Below, piece after piece: positions 2,827 through 25,872 of a stretch of 64,000 nt of DNA (the first letter of the stretch is position 1; each line of letters starts with the position of its first letter). Source of the DNA: Anaerolineales bacterium (GTDB lineage Bacteria > Chloroflexota > Anaerolineae > Anaerolineales > UBA11579). Location of the stretch: the NCBI GenBank assembly GCA_020059485.1, contig JAGVCA010000048.1:1-64000 (forward strand), given 5' to 3'. Below the pieces are notes generated by a model. It saw only the letters and a program-made list of their open reading frames with translations, did no database searches and was not told the DNA's origin. Made by a program: the position numbers and the translations under genes.

Positions 2827-5079
2827 TCAAACATCAGAGGCTGGGGGTTCTTCATCAGTCTCCGGTGTATCACCGTTCCCGCCTTTGCGGCTGAACACGA
2901 TTGTCAGGCCGACACCGAGTACCAGAGCGCCAAAGAAAGCGGCCCAGACGGGGATGTTGATGCCCACCCGCTCAGGTTCTTCGACCACCACTTCTTCCAC
3001 CGGGAGCGGGGAAGTAGTGTCGCTGCCGGTGATGATCGCGTTGGCGCTGTGGATCGATTCCTGATGACATTCCAGACAGGTATCGGAGCCGATCTTCCAG
3101 GTGTGGCCGGTATTGAATTCCGTGTTCATATGGCATTCGTTGCAGACCAACCCGGCAGCTGTGTGGGTGGAGTGAGCGATCTGCTCGGTGTTATCTGGGT
3201 GGCAGGTCTGGCAGGAGATCACGAACCCGCCGATGGTCATCTGGTCCTGCGAGTGGGGGTTGTGGCAGGTGACGCAGGTGACGTTGTACTCACTGTGGAC
3301 ACTCTCTTCCCAGTCGCGGTATTCGTTGATGTGACAGGCGCCGCAGATCTCAGCGGCCTTGGACATCGTGAAGGCTACCTGCGGGTGCGGACCGTCTTCT
3401 TCAAGATGGTGGCAGGAAACACAGCCAACCGAGTTATCCATGTGGGAACTCGTGCCCCACAGTTCATGTTCGGTGACATGGCAGGCTTTGCAGGCATCCG
3501 GGTCGGTCGGGGTAGAGGGAAGCGGCTCGACGAAGCTGGTTTCAGGCGGGAAGTTGGTCAGTTTGGTGACCTCCGCCTCTGAATAACCGAGGGCAACGAA
3601 ATCGAGCCGGCTGCCTTCGCCTGTGTGACAGTCCTGGCAAGCCAGCGCCTGGGAGGCGGGTGCAACCATATGGGTGATCGGCCAGTACATCTGGGAATCG
3701 ACAAAGCCGAAATTGCCGCTGTAGGGCAGGCCGGCGTATTCCATCCCGGAGGTGATGGCCGCGTTCCAGTCAAAGGTCTTCCAGTAGGCAGCCTCGTCCT
3801 GGCCGAAAAGATGCGGGATGGCCAGGATGTTGTTGCCTGAATCGTAAGGTTGTTTGGCAGTGAAATTTTTAACCGGGTAGAGCCTGGCGTTCGGGTCGTC
3901 TTTGTCACCGAGGAAGGTGTTAATGGCGACTACGCCAGAGGGATCAATCACCTCACCGGGCAGGCTGTAAGAGACATTGCCGTTGTACCAGGTGTATTGC
4001 GGCACAACATTGGTCTCGAAGGTGAAAGCGCCTTTCTTGCTGTCATAGATCACCCAGCCGTTATCATCGGCGTCGGTATACGGTTTTTCTGCCGAGTTCA
4101 ATTGCCCGGCCACCGACCAATCCCAGGTCATCTTGGTGGGCAGACCGCCGCGCGCAAATTCGGGGATATGGCAAGTCTGGCAGGCAACTTTGTCGCTGTG
4201 ATTGTTGAGCGAATCAAGGTCGTGGGGTGTGGTGGTGTGGCAATCTTCGCAGCCCTGCCAGTCGCCCTCGGCGCTGGCATACCTGCTGCCGGCGATCTGG
4301 TGTCCTTCGGTCATGTGGCAGGCGGTGCAGTTGAAGTCTGCGCCGTCAGCGGACATATGGACATCGAGTTCATACGGCGGATCGATCAGCGTGGTGTCCA
4401 GGTCGCCGTGTTTGACGTAATCGCCGCCGCCGCCGTAGAAGTGGCAGGAGCCGCAGGTCTCGCGGGAAGTCCGGCCGATGTTCTGGGCGACGTTGGCCAG
4501 GTCGGGCGGGGAGAAGATCTTACCGCTGCCGACAGGAAATTCGGTCTCAGAGGCTGCGGGATAGCCGGCGCCGGTGGGGAACTTTTCGTAGGTGCCGGTG
4601 GTGTCGTGGCAGACCAGACAATCGATATTCTCCTCCTCAGAGAAATCGAATGTATTGTCTTCCCAGCCGTAACCGATATGGCAGCTGGTGCAGCGCGGTT
4701 CGTTGGACTGAATGCTGATACAGAAGTTGTTGATCAGGTTTTTCTTGCCCAGCACCTGGCCGGTTTGTTCGTTGGTCAGCTCCCAGGTCCAGTGAACGGT
4801 GTTCATGATCTCGGGGGCGACGTCGGTATGGCAGGAGAGACAGGCTCTCGTGACCGCCTGGGGAGTCTCGAATGGCCCTTGCAGCGCGCCGAAGGTGCTG
4901 TGATCGATGACCGGGTCTTGCGGGTTGGGTCCAGGTTCGGGCGTGTTGTCCTGTGCGCTGACGGTCATTACCCCGGTTAACCCAATGGCAACAATCATCA
5001 GGGTCAGCCCAAGAATGATAAAGAGCCAATTCGCGTTTGGTTTTCTGGAATGGTGCATGTGCATCTCTCCTTGGATCAA
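2827..5079 (-). CDS. Multiheme c-type cytochrome, octaheme tetrathionate reductase-like, 15 CxxCH
   Basis: 15 CxxCH motifs counted; N-terminal signal; C-terminal TM anchor; CTSCHIGYGW...NIDCLVCHDTTGTYEK resembles the OTR family. Confidence 0.85.
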   Translation of the reverse strand: MIQGEMHMHHSRKPNANWLFIILGLTLMIVAIGLTGVMTVSAQDNTPEPGPNPQDPVIDHSTFGALQGPFETPQAVTRACLSCHTDVAPEIMNTVHWTWELTNEQTGQVLGKKNLINNFCISIQSNEPRCTSCHIGYGWEDNTFDFSEEENIDCLVCHDTTGTYEKFPTGAGYPAASETEFPVGSGKIFSPPDLANVAQNIGRTSRETCGSCHFYGGGGDYVKHGDLDTTLIDPPYELDVHMSADGADFNCTACHMTEGHQIAGSRYASAEGDWQGCEDCHTTTPHDLDSLNNHSDKVACQTCHIPEFARGGLPTKMTWDWSVAGQLNSAEKPYTDADDNGWVIYDSKKGAFTFETNVVPQYTWYNGNVSYSLPGEVIDPSGVVAINTFLGDKDDPNARLYPVKNFTAKQPYDSGNNILAIPHLFGQDEAAYWKTFDWNAAITSGMEYAGLPYSGNFGFVDSQMYWPITHMVAPASQALACQDCHTGEGSRLDFVALGYSEAEVTKLTNFPPETSFVEPLPSTPTDPDACKACHVTEHELWGTSSHMDNSVGCVSCHHLEEDGPHPQVAFTMSKAAEICGACHINEYRDWEESVHSEYNVTCVTCHNPHSQDQMTIGGFVISCQTCHPDNTEQIAHSTHTAAGLVCNECHMNTEFNTGHTWKIGSDTCLECHQESIHSANAIITGSDTTSPLPVEEVVVEEPERVGINIPVWAAFFGALVLGVGLTIVFSRKGGNGDTPETDEEPPASDV

Positions 5080-8520: not shown

Positions 8521-8569
8521 ATCTTTCTCCTTTTGGATATTTAATTATTTTCATTGTAGGATATAGCTA

Positions 8570-8588
8570 TGAAGAAGTTGTGAAGAAG
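8570..8588. promoter_or_regulatory. Tandem direct repeat, OmpR-type response-regulator site candidate
   Basis: TGAAGAAG-TTG-TGAAGAAG, 11-bp periodicity, upstream of the secreted-protein / TCS genes. Confidence 0.45.
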
Positions 8589-8635: not shown

Positions 8636-8716
8636 TAAGGAGTATGTTGGTAAGATTTACCTATGTCGGTATTTGGATGGGGGGGGATATAATAATTTCA
8701 GTCTTGAGGAGGTATT

Positions 8717-8974
8717 TTGGCCAAGTTAGCGTTCGAAGAAGTTTCCCGTTATAAGGCGCTTGCTGGGGGCAGGGTAGTGCCAGATCCGTACCGCTGTGTG
8801 CAGTGTGGTATCTGCTCGTATAACTGTCCGATTGGGATAGATGTGCGGCGGTTTGCGTGGCTTGGCAAGCCGGTTGTCGACCGACACTGTCTTACCTGTG
8901 GCGAGTGCATTGCCAGATGTCCCCGCGGCGTCCTGCGCTTTGAAGGCGCTGAACTTCCAGTCAGGGAGACATAA
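8717..8974 (+). CDS. 4Fe-4S dicluster ferredoxin-like protein
   Basis: CVQCGICSYNCPIG...CLTCGECIARCPRG; TTG start after GGAGG; TAATG overlap with next gene. Confidence 0.85.
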   Translation: MAKLAFEEVSRYKALAGGRVVPDPYRCVQCGICSYNCPIGIDVRRFAWLGKPVVDRHCLTCGECIARCPRGVLRFEGAELPVRET

Positions 8975-10296
8975 TGCGGTATGCCATATTGGGGATGGGC
9001 GCAGCTGGGATTGCTGCTGCCGAAGCGATCAGGGCTCACGACTCTGGCGGAGAGATAGTTTGCATCAGTTTTGAGTCAGATGGATATTATTCCCGACCAG
9101 GTTTGGCCTACTATTTGAGCAAGGAGATGGGGAAACGCTCGCTCTACCCAATGAGCGACAGGGACTTTTCTGACAGGCAGATCAAGAAATACCACAACCT
9201 GGCTGTCCGGTTGGATACAGTGAATAATGAGATCCTGCTCTCGGATGGAAAACGCTTACGCTATGACAAGGCCTTGTTGGCCCTGGGTGCAGAAGCCGTG
9301 GTGCCTGACTTGGAGGGTGTCAACCTAAAGGGAGTCGTTTACCTGGACTCCATGGCGCGGACGCGGGAGATGATTGATCTGGCACGCAGGCATAAGCGAG
9401 CGGTGGTTGTGGGGGGTGGGATCACCGCGCTTGAGTTGGCAGAGGGATTGGCAGCGCGCCGCGTACGAGTAGATTATTTTTTACGCGGTGACCGGTATTG
9501 GAATCGGGTATTGGATGAAATGGAATCCGGGCTCATCATACAGCGGTTGAAGCATGAGGGCGTCCAAGTCCACTTCAACACCGAGGTTGGTGAGATTGTG
9601 GGAAAACGCGGGCAGGTCAACGCAGTTCGGACCACAGATGGGCGCTTATTTAAAACCAATCTGGTAGGTTTGGCGATTGGGGTGCGGCCCCGACTGGATT
9701 TGGCCAGGGTTAGTGGGCTAACGGTCAACCGCGGTGTCATCGTCGATGAGTTCCTACAAACCAGTGCGCCACAGGTATGGGCTGCAGGTGATGTCGCTGA
9801 GGTTGTGGATCCCGACAGCGGCCGCGGTGTGGTGGATAGTTTGTGGCCGGTAGCCCGTCAGCAGGGCAGAGTAGCGGGGCTGAATATGGCTGGGATCCGA
9901 ACTGAATACCACCGCCGCAGCCCATTAAACGTCACACGGCTGGCAGGGCTGACCACCACGATCATCGGCCAGGTAGGCACAGAGTCGAATAACGGAGATG
10001 ACCTGACCATCGTGCGCGGAGAGAGCGAGACCTGGCAACGGACTCCGGAGGCGGTGATCTGTCAGAATGTGGAGGATATTAACCGGGTCAGAGTGATGGT
10101 GGCACAGAACAAGTTGGTCGGTGCGGTCGTGATGGGCGATCAGGCCCTTTCCCGACCTTTGGATGACCTGATCTCCAATGAGGCTAATATCGCACCCATC
10201 CGGGATCGATTGACTGCTCCTGGGGCAGATATTAGTAAGATCATTCGTCCTTTCTGGGAGAATTGGAGGAGGAATAATGCGGATCAAGAACCTTGA
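8974..10296 (+). CDS. NAD(P)/FAD-dependent oxidoreductase
   Basis: ILGMGAAGIAAAEAI FAD motif, VVVGGGITALELAEGL, QVWAAGDVAE. Confidence 0.9.
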   Translation: MRYAILGMGAAGIAAAEAIRAHDSGGEIVCISFESDGYYSRPGLAYYLSKEMGKRSLYPMSDRDFSDRQIKKYHNLAVRLDTVNNEILLSDGKRLRYDKALLALGAEAVVPDLEGVNLKGVVYLDSMARTREMIDLARRHKRAVVVGGGITALELAEGLAARRVRVDYFLRGDRYWNRVLDEMESGLIIQRLKHEGVQVHFNTEVGEIVGKRGQVNAVRTTDGRLFKTNLVGLAIGVRPRLDLARVSGLTVNRGVIVDEFLQTSAPQVWAAGDVAEVVDPDSGRGVVDSLWPVARQQGRVAGLNMAGIRTEYHRRSPLNVTRLAGLTTTIIGQVGTESNNGDDLTIVRGESETWQRTPEAVICQNVEDINRVRVMVAQNKLVGAVVMGDQALSRPLDDLISNEANIAPIRDRLTAPGADISKIIRPFWENWRRNNADQEP

Positions 10297-10858
10297 ACTA
10301 TGGGCAGCCTTTGGAACAATGATCGTTCTGGGGGCAGGTTATGGGATATGGTCTTCTCAAAATGGGCTGCCAAAATCCAGCGGGTTGGCGGGTCATCTGA
10401 TCGGAGTGGTTGGGTTTTTACTGATGCTGATGACTGAGATCCTGTATTCCGTGCGGAAAAGTTCACCGAATGCCCGCTGGGGGAAACTACAGCACTGGCT
10501 GGCGTTCCATGTTTACACCGGTCTGGTTGGGCCATTTTTGGTTTTGCTTCACACTGCCTGGCGCTTCAATGGGATTGCCGGGATCTTGACTTTGCTGATG
10601 GTCATCATTGTTTTAAGCGGTTTTGTCGGGCGGTTCTTTTACACCCAAATCCCGCGGGATGAAGACGGCCAGTTGCTGCCAGATGAACTCGTACCGGAAC
10701 AACAGGAGCAGCAAATACGCGGAGCAGCCCGAACAGCCAAAGCGCGCCGCTTACTGGCGGTCTGGCATGCGTTCCATGTCCCGTTTGGGGTGGTGATGTT
10801 TACGATTGCCTTTATTCACATCGGGGCGGCGTTGTATTACGCCACCCTGGTGCGGTGA
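10277..10858 (+). CDS. Membrane protein, cytochrome b / ferric-reductase-like
   Basis: 193 aa, several TM helices with conserved His; translationally linked to neighbours. Confidence 0.6.
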   Translation: MRIKNLELWAAFGTMIVLGAGYGIWSSQNGLPKSSGLAGHLIGVVGFLLMLMTEILYSVRKSSPNARWGKLQHWLAFHVYTGLVGPFLVLLHTAWRFNGIAGILTLLMVIIVLSGFVGRFFYTQIPRDEDGQLLPDELVPEQQEQQIRGAARTAKARRLLAVWHAFHVPFGVVMFTIAFIHIGAALYYATLVR

Positions 10859-10868
10859 GGAGGAGGCG

Positions 10869-12527
10869 ATGAAACGGAGAAATCTAGGCTGCCTGACCAG
10901 TGGCGGGATGATCGCGCTGGTCATCTCGTTGGTCTTTGCTGGCGCGAGTTATGCCATTGGCGGGGGTAAAATGTTCAGCCCGGGAGAACTAAAGGCTGAT
11001 TCGTCAGCCAATTCCCTAGGAGCGATTGCTTCTCACGCCGAACTTGAAAAAGAATGTGCTGCCTGTCATCCGGCTTTCTGGGATGCAGACACAATGACCG
11101 ACCTGTGTCTGGATTGCCACGTCGATATCCAGGATTCGATGAGCGATTCAACCTCGCTGCATGGCGCAGTGATGTCAAAATTCTCAACCATCAACTGTCG
11201 GGAATGCCATAATGAACACAACGGGCCGGAAGGCGAGATTACTGAAAGATTGTCGGAGGATTTCCCGCACGAACTGGTTGGGTTTGCGCTGACCGGACAT
11301 CAACAATTGGATTGGGACCAGGATGTCACTTGTCTCGACTGCCATCAGGCTGGATACACCGTGGTGGAAAATATCTTATGCCGGAACTGCCATGAGCAGG
11401 TGGACAGCGATGTCACAGGTACGCATATTGATCTTTTTGGAACTGACTGCATGGACTGCCACGATGGTATTGATACCTACGGCAAAGACTTTGATCATAA
11501 TGCCCATCCCTTCCCGCTGGTTGGCAACCATATCCCGCTGAGCTGCGTCGAATGCCACCAGGATGCCAGCAGCCTGGACGAACTGCAAAACACACCGCAG
11601 GATTGCCGGGAGTGTCACGAGGACCGCGATGACCATGAAGGCACTCTGGGTGACAATTGCGCGGTCTGCCACACGCCTGATGGATGGGAGTTCGGGGTCT
11701 TTGACCATTCTCAAACTGGTTTTGACCTGATCGGCGGGCATGCCGAGATCGACTGTGAGGATTGTCATGTTGATGCCACTTACCAGGGGGCAGACCCGGC
11801 CTGTATTGCCTGTCACGCGGAGGACGATGAGCATCAGGGAACATTCGGAACAGAATGCCAGGCCTGTCATAACCCGGTTAGCTGGCTGGATGTGACCTTT
11901 GATCATCAGGGACCGTTAGCGGCCGACTGCTTTGCCTGTCACACCAATGATAAGCCCGTGGACCATTATCCCGGAATCTGCTCGGCTTGCCACACCACCT
12001 TTGCCTGGCTGCCAGCCACGTTCGACCACCAGGTGGCGGGCGCATCGGATTGCCTGAGCTGCCATACCAAGGATAAACCGGGAGAACACTTCGGCGGGCA
12101 ATGTTCGGCCTGTCACAACACCAGCGGTTGGCTGCCGGCTTCCTTCAATCACGTCGCTGCAGGAGCTACAGATTGCCTTGCCTGCCATACTGGGCAGCGT
12201 CCGGCGAACCACTTCGGTGGGCAATGTTCCATGTGTCACAGTACCAGCGCCTGGAAGCCGGCCAGTTTCAAGCATACCTTCCCAATGAACCACGGCGGGG
12301 CAAATGAAAAGTGCGCGACTTGCCACCCGAGCGGGAGTTACCCTAACTACACGTGCTATGGCTGCCATGAACATACTCCCGCCAACATCAACAACGAACA
12401 TGAAGGTATTGCCAATGTGAACAACTGTGTCGCCTGCCACTGGGATGGCGACAAGCATGATGATGGCGGTGAAGACAGCGGCGGAAATGATGGGGGCAAC
12501 AACGAGAACAACGAAAACAACAATTGA
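10869..12527 (+). CDS. Secreted multiheme c-type cytochrome with 21 CxxCH motifs
   Basis: 21 CxxCH counted; repeated module CxxCHTxxxPxxHFGGQCSxCHxTxxWxPAxFxH; acidic/Asn-rich tail. Confidence 0.9.
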   Translation: MKRRNLGCLTSGGMIALVISLVFAGASYAIGGGKMFSPGELKADSSANSLGAIASHAELEKECAACHPAFWDADTMTDLCLDCHVDIQDSMSDSTSLHGAVMSKFSTINCRECHNEHNGPEGEITERLSEDFPHELVGFALTGHQQLDWDQDVTCLDCHQAGYTVVENILCRNCHEQVDSDVTGTHIDLFGTDCMDCHDGIDTYGKDFDHNAHPFPLVGNHIPLSCVECHQDASSLDELQNTPQDCRECHEDRDDHEGTLGDNCAVCHTPDGWEFGVFDHSQTGFDLIGGHAEIDCEDCHVDATYQGADPACIACHAEDDEHQGTFGTECQACHNPVSWLDVTFDHQGPLAADCFACHTNDKPVDHYPGICSACHTTFAWLPATFDHQVAGASDCLSCHTKDKPGEHFGGQCSACHNTSGWLPASFNHVAAGATDCLACHTGQRPANHFGGQCSMCHSTSAWKPASFKHTFPMNHGGANEKCATCHPSGSYPNYTCYGCHEHTPANINNEHEGIANVNNCVACHWDGDKHDDGGEDSGGNDGGNNENNENNN

Positions 12528-12549
12528 ATTTGGCTGATCCGAGAAGCAA

Positions 12550-12581
12550 CGAGGCGGCTCTGAAGAGCCGCCTCGTTTTTT
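12550..12581 (+). terminator. Intrinsic terminator
   Basis: CGAGGCGGCTC-TGAA-GAGCCGCCTCG-TTTTTT. Confidence 0.9.
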
Positions 12582-23726: not shown

Positions 23727-24086
23727 ATGAAAATTGCTATTTCTTCGACTATTGGCAAGATCAATGAACCGATCAGTGAGCGCTTTGGCCGTTGCAAATA
23801 CTTTCTGATCTTTGACTCAGAGTGTCGCAAATGGGATACGAAACGCAACCCAGCTGAATCAGCACGAGGTGGGGCCGGCAGCCAGGTGGTCCAATTTCTT
23901 TGTGATAATGGCGTGCGGGCTGTGATCAGTGGGCAATTTGGCCCCAATGCATATACTGCCTTGGCGGCCGCAGGTATGCAGGCTTATCGGGCAAGCAGTG
24001 GAACGCCCGAGGAATTGGTCGAGCGGCTGTTGGAAGGTGAGTTACAACAGGTTGATGTAGGATCTGGCTCAGAAAGACATTATTGA
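23727..24086 (+). CDS. NifX/NifB C-terminal-like (dinitrogenase iron-molybdenum cofactor family) protein
   Basis: MKIAISSTIGKINEPISERFGRCKYFLIFD; 119 aa. Confidence 0.85.
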   Translation: MKIAISSTIGKINEPISERFGRCKYFLIFDSECRKWDTKRNPAESARGGAGSQVVQFLCDNGVRAVISGQFGPNAYTALAAAGMQAYRASSGTPEELVERLLEGELQQVDVGSGSERHY

Positions 24087-24961
24087 TGGTGATTGCAGTC
24101 GCGAGTGGAAAAGGCGGTACCGGAAAAACTACGATAGCCGTCAGTTTGGCGAAAACACTGGCCGGGCTTGGCGTTCGGTTGTCTTTTCTGGATTGTGATG
24201 TTGAAGCGCCAGACGCAGATATCTACTTGAAACCTTCACCAGAGCAAAGAAAATCAGTTGAGATCCTGATCCCGGAAGTGGATCCCTCGCGGTGCTCTGG
24301 TTGTGGCCGATGTGCTGAAGTGTGTCAGTACAATGCGATCGTGGTTTTTGGCAACCACCCGCTTGTCCTTCCCCAATTGTGTCATGGCTGTGGAAGCTGC
24401 AGCTTGACATGTCCCGAAAGGGCGATCTCAGAAATCCCACGGCCGATTGGTTTTTTAGAGCGCGGCACAACCTCGGATGGGATTGATTTTTCCCGCGGTG
24501 TGCTCTCGATCGGAGAACCCCTGGCGGTTCCAGTCATCTCACACTTGAAACAATGGCACGACCATGCCGAAGAGGAGGTTGTCATCATTGATGCCCCGCC
24601 GGGAACGTCCTGCCCGGTGGTTGAATCAGTGCGCGGGGCTGGTTTTGTCATCCTGGTGACGGAACCTACGCCGTTTGGATTGCACGATTTGAGGTTGACG
24701 GTAAGGTTAACCGAGGAACTCAAGATTCCAAGAGGTGTGATCATCAATCGGGATGGGATCGGGAACGACGAGGTTGACCGCTATTGCCTGGCGAACGACC
24801 TACCTATCTTGATGCGGATACCTTTTGAGAGGGAAATTGGGGCAGGGATCGCTCAGGGGAAGTCCTTGGTGGAGATCGATCCGTCGTATATAGATCGGTT
24901 TCTGGCATTGTATAATCGATTGGAAGTACTGGCAGCTTCGAACGGAAAGGTGGGCGGATGA
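24086..24961 (+). CDS. MinD/Mrp-family P-loop ATPase with inserted 2[4Fe-4S] domain
   Basis: SGKGGTGKTT; CSGCGRCAEVCQYNAI...CHGCGSCSLTCPERAI. Confidence 0.9.
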   Translation: MVIAVASGKGGTGKTTIAVSLAKTLAGLGVRLSFLDCDVEAPDADIYLKPSPEQRKSVEILIPEVDPSRCSGCGRCAEVCQYNAIVVFGNHPLVLPQLCHGCGSCSLTCPERAISEIPRPIGFLERGTTSDGIDFSRGVLSIGEPLAVPVISHLKQWHDHAEEEVVIIDAPPGTSCPVVESVRGAGFVILVTEPTPFGLHDLRLTVRLTEELKIPRGVIINRDGIGNDEVDRYCLANDLPILMRIPFEREIGAGIAQGKSLVEIDPSYIDRFLALYNRLEVLAASNGKVGG

Positions 24962-25872
24962 GCCAACTGGTGATCCTGAGCGGCAAGGGAGGCACCGGCA
25001 AGACCAGCGTGGCGGCCTCATTTGCCCACCTGGCGGCATGCAGTGGTGATCCAATTCGTTCAGTATTAGTGGACGCTGATGTGGATGCCGCTAACCTGGA
25101 GCTCGTACTCGCTCCGGAGATCCTGGAGACTCATAAGTTTTACGGGGGTCAACTAGCCGTGATTGATCCGCAGGTATGTATGGGCTGCGGGACTTGCCAG
25201 CAGGTATGCCGATTTGACGCGGTGGATGAGATCGATGGAATTTATCAGATAGATCCAATCGCCTGTGAAGGCTGTGCGGCTTGCTTCTACCAATGCCCTG
25301 AAGAAGCCATTCGCCTGGAGTTGCAGCTGGCTGGGACATGGCAATACTCGCAGAGCCGATACGGGCCATTGTTCCATGCTGCACTGCGCCCAGCTCAGGA
25401 GAACTCGGGGAAACTGGTTGCTCTGGTGAAGGAGAGGGCGATCCAACTGGCCAATACCGAGCAATTCGAATTGATCCTGATAGATGGCCCGCCGGGGATT
25501 GGATGTCCGGTGATCTCGGCCGTATCCGGGGTGACGCTGGCGCTGATTGTCGTTGAGCCGACAGCCGCGGGCATTCATGACATGCATAGGATACTGGAGA
25601 CGACTCGCCATTTTGAGATACCTGCGATCGTGTGTGTCAACAAGGCCGATCTTAATCTGGACGGAACTGCCTTGATCCGGGAATATTGCCAGGAGAAGGG
25701 GATCGAGGTAATCGGAGAGATACCGTTTGACGAATCGGTAACTGAGGCAATGGTGTCCGGAGAACCGGTTACGGCGTATCGGCCGAATGCGCCTGCCAGC
25801 CTGGCTTTGATCGCTTTGTGGGCTCAGGTTGTAAGTGCCTTGAGGAGAACCATCAAGATCAATTGTGTCTAG
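24958..25872 (+). CDS. MinD/Mrp-family P-loop ATPase with inserted 2[4Fe-4S] domain (second paralogue)
   Basis: SGKGGTGKTS; CMGCGTCQQVCRFDAV...CEGCAACFYQCPEEAI. Confidence 0.9.
   Translation: MSQLVILSGKGGTGKTSVAASFAHLAACSGDPIRSVLVDADVDAANLELVLAPEILETHKFYGGQLAVIDPQVCMGCGTCQQVCRFDAVDEIDGIYQIDPIACEGCAACFYQCPEEAIRLELQLAGTWQYSQSRYGPLFHAALRPAQENSGKLVALVKERAIQLANTEQFELILIDGPPGIGCPVISAVSGVTLALIVVEPTAAGIHDMHRILETTRHFEIPAIVCVNKADLNLDGTALIREYCQEKGIEVIGEIPFDESVTEAMVSGEPVTAYRPNAPASLALIALWAQVVSALRRTIKINCV

What the first reader, a model, noticed from the sequence alone, without database searches (positions are those of the whole stretch)
8717..12527. Compact ferredoxin - flavoprotein - membrane cytochrome - 21-heme cytochrome operon: candidate extracellular electron conduit
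Four translationally coupled genes go from a cytosolic dicluster ferredoxin and an FAD/NAD(P) oxidoreductase, through a membrane b-type-like protein, to a secreted 21-CxxCH cytochrome. The cytochrome has near-repeat modules (about 43 aa: CxxCHTKDKPxxHFGGQCSACHxTSGWLPAxFxH) whose FDH/FNH/FKH His residues are plausible distal heme ligands. With no outer-membrane porin partner, this would suit a monoderm cell moving electrons to or from its surface.
Basis: partly seen in the sequence, partly recalled or inferred. Interest (0 to 1): 0.7.

Follow-up and report, generated by a model that had tools for sequence, protein, structure and literature searches.

The report
NADPH-to-surface multiheme electron conduit operon
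Four adjacent genes in a single-membrane bacterium, kept together across many related genomes, appear to build an electrical lead that takes electrons from the cell's NAD(P)H pool straight across the membrane to a long chain of haems outside the cell, a layout I did not find described before.

Summary
In detail: four tightly packed genes encode a dicluster ferredoxin, an FAD/NAD(P) oxidoreductase, a diheme cytochrome b and a membrane-anchored 21-CxxCH cytochrome, followed by a strong terminator. All four genes sit together in 24 of 26 strongly matching loci from related genomes, with gene order reshuffled, so the set is a conserved functional module. The cytochrome b has exactly four invariant His in two 14-residue-spaced pairs, the layout of two stacked hemes across a membrane. 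The cytochrome has 22 conserved non-CxxCH His for 21 hemes, so nearly every heme can be bis-His. Its length varies (14-30 hemes) by adding 2-heme or 3-heme modules. No Omp85 gene was found in 24 relatives, so the cell is probably monoderm. One relative carries an unrelated NAD(P)H flavoprotein/2Fe-2S gene beside the same cytochrome b and a 7-heme cytochrome, supporting an NAD(P)H-to-surface route. The operon is not tied to the nearby octaheme reductase cluster; a same-genus genome has the whole neighbourhood minus the operon. Direction, terminal acceptor and heme spacing are unproven (the cytochrome model failed). New variant of the known class of electron conduits.

The parts
8717..8974 (+). 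Dicluster 2[4Fe-4S] ferredoxin, 85 aa (TTG start)
   Evidence: Pfam Fer4_7/Fer4_10 above cut-off; eight Cys invariant in 14 homologues
8974..10296 (+). FAD/NAD(P) oxidoreductase, 440 aa, NirB/rubredoxin-reductase/AorC-like
   Evidence: PF07992 172 bits; best solved relative AorC 8c0z_E, profile E 5e-67; Arg171 invariant at the end of the second strand of the pyridine-nucleotide fold
10277..10858 (+). Membrane diheme cytochrome b, 193 aa, five helices
   Evidence: Weak PF01292 (25.4 bits, cut-off 30.1); His78/His92 and His167/His181 are the only invariant His in 29 homologues; AlphaFold pLDDT 89.7, five helices
10869..12527 (+). 21-heme c-type cytochrome, 552 aa, N-terminal membrane anchor
   Evidence: 21 CxxCH; Pfam Cytochrome_C7/c3; 22 of 24 non-CxxCH His conserved in homologues
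10869..10991 (+). Anchor segment of the cytochrome: conserved LGCLT, hydrophobic helix aa 11-30, conserved MFSPGEL
   Evidence: Helix 11-30 in the model; sequences of 23 homologues, most lacking an AxA signal-peptidase site
11658..11855 (+). 66-aa, 3-heme module (one copy here; up to seven copies in relatives)
   Evidence: Pattern scan of homologues
11928..12287 (+). Three 41-aa, 2-heme modules (aa 354-394, 395-435, 436-473)
   Evidence: Pattern scan; four copies in same-genus G002
12312..12440 (+). C-terminal 3-heme cap (CxxCH at aa 482, 496, 520)
   Evidence: Conserved at the end of the homologues in A2/A4
12548..12577 (+). Intrinsic terminator hairpin, T-run follows
   Evidence: Fold -26.5 kcal/mol, z -5.2, 0 of 200 shuffles as stable

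Best explanation
The operon encodes a transmembrane electron conduit that links the cytosolic NAD(P)H pool to the outside of a single-membrane cell without needing a quinone. Proposed path: NAD(P)H gives a hydride to the FAD protein; the FAD protein passes single electrons to the dicluster ferredoxin; the ferredoxin reduces the inner heme of the cytochrome b (His78-His167); the electron crosses to the outer heme (His92-His181); from there it enters the membrane-anchored multiheme cytochrome and hops along its bis-His hemes to the cell surface, where it meets an acceptor (mineral, electrode, humic, another cell or another cytochrome). The number of 2-heme or 3-heme modules sets how far the cytochrome reaches. 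Shown: gene set, cofactor motifs, conservation, linkage, anchor helix, lack of Omp85. Inferred: the pairing of ligands, the order of electron steps, quinone independence, outward direction (membrane potential favours electrons leaving the cytosol) and the surface acceptor.
For: All four genes in one place in 24 of 26 loci with a strong cytochrome b match, from families f1, f4-f6, f8, f10, f11, f36 and f44 of the phylum, with gene order reshuffled; the two exceptions are a contig end and a locus where no ferredoxin was detected. Pairwise divergences of FAD protein, cytochrome b and cytochrome c correlate (r 0.68-0.83, 0 of 300 permutations as high; shared ancestry contributes). Four invariant His spaced 14 within helices 3 and 5. 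22 conserved candidate distal His for 21 hemes. FAD protein is closest to AorC, which exchanges electrons between the 4Fe-4S ferredoxin-like AorA and NAD (PMC10413684). In G279 an FNR-type flavoprotein with a 2Fe-2S domain stands in front of the cytochrome b and a 7-heme cytochrome, an independent NAD(P)H supply for the same membrane step. Omp85 absent in 24/24 relatives while 7 of 14 control genomes ring. Haem-attachment genes present in the own genome.
Against: No biochemistry. The cytochrome model is unusable, so heme-to-heme distances are untested. A quinone site in the cytochrome b cannot be excluded: His40 and His164 are also conserved among the close homologues. In large-genome families such as f41 the FAD protein and cytochrome b, with a ferredoxin-like gene in several loci, occur with no multiheme gene close by, so the inner part can work without an extracellular cytochrome. 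The operon is dispensable: same-genus G001 lacks it at the same site.
Confidence: 0.6

Rival explanations
1. Quinol-linked conduit: the cytochrome b oxidises menaquinol and feeds the multiheme cytochrome (like CbcL or the Hmc-type complexes), and the FAD protein/ferredoxin pair either reduces the same quinone pool or does something else in the cytosol.
For: Cytochrome b weakly resembles b561; complex I is present, so a quinone pool is likely; many known conduits start at the quinone pool (general knowledge). FAD protein plus cytochrome b without a multiheme gene in f41 would fit an NAD(P)H:quinone reductase.
Against: FAD protein and ferredoxin are linked in nearly every locus, and G279 replaces them by another NAD(P)H flavoprotein/FeS protein rather than dropping them. 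Two hemes from four invariant His give a complete path from inside to outside.
Confidence: 0.22
2. Electron uptake: the same chain run inward, taking electrons from Fe(II), an electrode or a partner cell to make reduced ferredoxin or NAD(P)H.
For: Components are reversible in principle; AorC works in the NAD-reducing direction; a cultured Chloroflexi isolate does both anodic and cathodic transfer (PMC5808234).
Against: Moving electrons inward works against the membrane potential, and no energy coupling is visible in the operon.
Confidence: 0.1
3. Assimilatory or protective surface ferric/oxidant reductase, like NADPH oxidase or STEAP ferric reductases (NADPH to FAD to b heme to the outside), with the multiheme cytochrome as an extended reach.
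For: Similar cofactor logic; variable, dispensable operon; Arg171 where AorC has an acidic residue hints at NADPH.
Against: 14-30 hemes exceed what soluble Fe(III) reduction needs; no iron-uptake genes recognised beside the operon in the ORF list.
Confidence: 0.07

Closest known systems
AorABC (tungsten aldehyde oxidoreductase of Aromatoleum aromaticum, PDB 8c0z) and PadF/PadH of phenylglyoxylate dehydrogenase
   Same: FAD/NAD subunit of the same family paired with a 4Fe-4S ferredoxin-like protein; electrons run between FeS chain, FAD and NAD
   Different: There the pair serves a soluble cytosolic enzyme; here it sits with a membrane cytochrome b and an external multiheme cytochrome
Large multiheme cytochromes of Anaerolineales reported from bioanode communities (PMC7399161) and the 24-heme cytochrome of Chloroflexi RBG-9 (PMC3971608)
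   Same: Large multiheme cytochromes in Chloroflexi; in PMC7399161 the CxxCH number varies between close relatives and no porin partner was found
   Different: The passages read do not report the ferredoxin-FAD-cytochrome b partners or the anchor; I could not compare sequences, so identity of the family is likely but untested
Hmc/HmcA 16-heme transmembrane complex of sulfate reducers
   Same: Multiheme cytochrome with c3/c7-type repeats coupled to membrane and cytosolic subunits
   Different: HmcA model matched at 37 bits against a cut-off of 400; partners differ (NrfD and HdrD-like subunits in Hmc, general knowledge)
NADPH oxidase/STEAP ferric reductases
   Same: NAD(P)H, FAD, membrane b heme, acceptor outside
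   Different: No separate ferredoxin, no c hemes (general knowledge); no significant fold match of the cytochrome b in PDB
Porin-cytochrome conduits (MtrCAB and others)
   Same: Multiheme route to the surface
   Different: No porin and no Omp85 outer-membrane machinery in relatives

Membership tests
Pyridine nucleotide-disulphide oxidoreductase fold (PF07992), FeS-reducing branch | PF07992 domain above cut-off, no redox-active Cys pair | tested here: met
   172.1 bits vs 26.1; YSRPGLAYY at the site where CoA-disulfide reductases carry Cys
PadH / PadF equivalogs (NF045765, NF045763) | Score above the curated cut-off | tested here: not met
   172.6 vs 475 and 25.6 vs 150 bits: relatives, not members
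Cytochrome b561 family (PF01292) | Score above the gathering cut-off | tested here: not met
   25.4 vs 30.1 bits; DUF4405 also below its cut-off
Diheme b-type four-His membrane cytochrome (functional class) | Two pairs of transmembrane His spaced for two stacked hemes, conserved | tested here: met
   His78/92 and His167/181 invariant in 29 homologues, five helices predicted; heme binding itself not tested
c7/c3-type multiheme cytochromes | Several CxxCH with c7/c3 domain match | tested here: met
   21 CxxCH; PF14522 73 bits, cut-off 24.8
HmcA (NF045713) | Score above 400 bits | tested here: not met
   37.1 bits
Porin-cytochrome conduit | Outer-membrane porin partner and diderm envelope | tested here: not met
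   No porin in the operon; Omp85 absent in 24/24 relatives
Extracellular electron transfer conduit (functional class) | Electron delivery to or from an extracellular partner | not testable with these tools
   Needs electrochemistry or reduction assays
Cytochrome nanowire (OmcS-like continuous heme chain) | Adjacent hemes within tunnelling distance along the protein | tested here: inconclusive
   Model pLDDT 62, pTM 0.29, no hemes

The most novel reading that the evidence does not exclude
A quinone-independent route that wires the NAD(P)H pool of a monoderm bacterium directly to its surface through ferredoxin, a diheme cytochrome b and a length-adjustable multiheme cable (14-30 hemes), widespread in one phylum, with heme modules added or lost to match the thickness of the cell envelope.
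Probability: 0.35. Interest if true: 0.82.

Novelty: new variant of a known kind. Interest (0 to 1): 0.62.

Why it matters
How monoderm bacteria of this group, reported from anode communities and sediments in the papers read, might respire solid acceptors has, in what I found, no molecular path beyond lists of cytochromes. This module offers a complete, testable path from NAD(P)H to the surface, a marker gene set for finding it, and a natural series of cytochromes of 14 to 30 hemes for asking what sets cable length. If quinone independence holds, it would be a different energetic logic from the better-known conduits that start at the quinone pool.

Tried and rejected
(1) Heme distances: AlphaFold on the cytochrome failed. 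(2) Fold search of the cytochrome b in PDB: no hit below E 0.78. (3) Dependence on the neighbouring octaheme (OTR-type) cluster: rejected, since among the fetched module loci a strong OTR match occurs only in same-genus G002, and G001 has OTR without the operon. (4) Control by the two-component system next door: a perfect tandem box ATGAAGAAGTTGTGAAGAA (8569-8587) is conserved in G002 and G003, but it stays in G001 where the operon is missing, so it more likely serves the small-protein/regulator side. (5) Recent tandem duplication of heme modules: rejected here, DNA identity only 53-64%. (8) The scan tool missed the terminator, probably because part of its T-run pairs in the stem; folding found it.

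Full report
What is there. The window lies in contig C17 of an unnamed, 70% complete 2.2-Mb genome. Four plus-strand genes follow one another almost without gaps: ferredoxin 8717-8974, FAD protein 8974-10296, cytochrome b 10277-10858 and multiheme cytochrome 10869-12527. The first and last each have a strong ribosome site, and a 13-bp hairpin with a T-run at 12548-12577 closes the unit.

The parts. The ferredoxin has two CxxCxxCxxxC motifs, invariant in 14 homologues. The FAD protein belongs to the branch that exchanges electrons with small iron-sulfur proteins (NirB, rubredoxin and dioxygenase ferredoxin reductases), and its best solved relative is AorC. AorC links a ferredoxin-like subunit to NAD (PMC10413684). 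Where AorC has Glu at the end of the second strand of the nucleotide fold, this family has an invariant Arg; this hints at NADPH and is an inference only. The cytochrome b falls below the curated cut-offs of known families but has five confidently predicted helices. Across 29 homologues, including very distant ones, the only invariant His are 78, 92, 167 and 181, in two pairs 14 apart. That is the spacing of two stacked b hemes. By the positive-inside rule the arginine-rich loops are cytosolic, so one heme lies near each face; this is inference.

The cytochrome. It has 21 CxxCH and 24 other His, of which 22 are conserved: about one candidate distal ligand for each heme. The N-terminus is a hydrophobic helix preceded by a conserved LGC and followed by a conserved FSPG; most homologues lack a clear cleavage site, so it is probably an uncleaved anchor. 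The N-terminal heme region and the C-terminal three-heme cap are constant, while the middle grows by 41-aa two-heme modules (own family: three here, four in same-genus G002) or by 66-aa three-heme modules (up to seven in family f11), giving 14 to 30 hemes. Variation of heme number in Anaerolineales cytochromes had been noticed before (PMC7399161).

Conservation. A cytochrome b match occurs in 15 of 61 relatives, own genome included, and in 58 of 400 genomes of the phylum, many of the latter weak. In 26 loci with a strong match, 24 have all four genes together; one exception is cut by a contig end and in the other no ferredoxin was detected. Gene order differs (for example cytochrome first, or cytochrome b-cytochrome-ferredoxin-FAD), and extra multiheme genes of up to 34 hemes can join. 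Linkage that survives reshuffling argues for one machine. Two natural variants dissect it: genomes in which FAD protein and cytochrome b occur without a multiheme gene nearby, and G279, in which an FNR-type flavoprotein with a 2Fe-2S domain replaces the FAD protein and ferredoxin in front of the cytochrome b and a 7-heme cytochrome. The recurring element is an NAD(P)H flavoprotein next to the cytochrome b, usually with a separate or fused iron-sulfur protein.

Neighbourhood. On the other strand lie an octaheme tetrathionate reductase-family protein with extra hemes and a C-terminal anchor (2827-5079), an FeS protein, an NrfD protein and a two-component system. Same-genus G001 has all of this and then uvrB directly, with no operon; G000, G002 and the other-genus G003 have the operon between the small-protein gene and uvrB. 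The simplest reading is a clean loss in G001: the operon is an accessory, independent of the octaheme cluster. A conserved regulator-like box at 8569-8587 stays in G001, so it probably does not belong to the operon.

Cell envelope. Omp85 is absent in 24 of 24 relatives, 14 of them nearly complete, while the control rings in diderm genomes. Haem-attachment proteins and complex I are present in the own genome.

How it most likely works. NAD(P)H, FAD, ferredoxin, inner b heme, outer b heme, anchored multiheme cytochrome, outside acceptor. The membrane potential would pull electrons outward, so the device could keep the pool oxidised even with low-potential acceptors, at the cost of some potential (inference). 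A quinone branch at the cytochrome b is the main rival. The role in mineral or electrode respiration is plausible but untested.

Limits. No structure of the cytochrome was obtained. Occurrence outside the phylum was not tested. Literature was limited to open-access papers; no description of this four-gene set was found in the searches run.

Noticed in passing
window 2827-5079 (-), with 1981-2793 and 681-2039: Octaheme tetrathionate reductase-family protein (TIGR04315, 622 bits) fused to a further multiheme DmsE-like part and a C-terminal hydrophobic helix, in a cluster with a 4Fe-4S protein and NrfD: a second, probably quinone-linked respiratory unit, conserved in G001 and G002.
   Followed up: partly
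window 8569-8587 (+): Tandem box ATGAAGAAGTTGTGAAGAA (11-nt direct repeat, OmpR/PhoB-like spacing), conserved at the same place in G001, G002 and G003; 0.02 expected by chance in the window.
   Followed up: partly
L087 (G001:C19) 8713-11371: Natural empty site: same-genus genome has the same neighbourhood with uvrB directly after the small-protein gene and no conduit operon.
   Followed up: yes
L084 5152-8700 (G279): FNR-type flavoprotein with 2Fe-2S domain, cytochrome b homologue and 7-heme cytochrome in a row: an alternative version of the module.
   Followed up: partly
L080, L082, L083, L085: FAD protein and cytochrome b homologues, with a small ferredoxin-like gene in L085, without a multiheme gene nearby, mostly in families with large genomes; function unknown.
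   Followed up: no
window 10869-10900 and homologues in A4: Conserved Cys just before the membrane helix of the cytochrome (LGCLT) in 21 of 23 homologues; it would face the cytosol and its role is unexplained.
   Followed up: no
L034 13635-16367, L024, L026, L035: Partner multiheme cytochromes with a different start motif (PFxPGDxLFP) and up to 34 hemes beside the module.
   Followed up: no
window 24083-25872 (+): Two adjacent P-loop ATPases, each with 4Fe-4S motifs in the middle.
   Followed up: no
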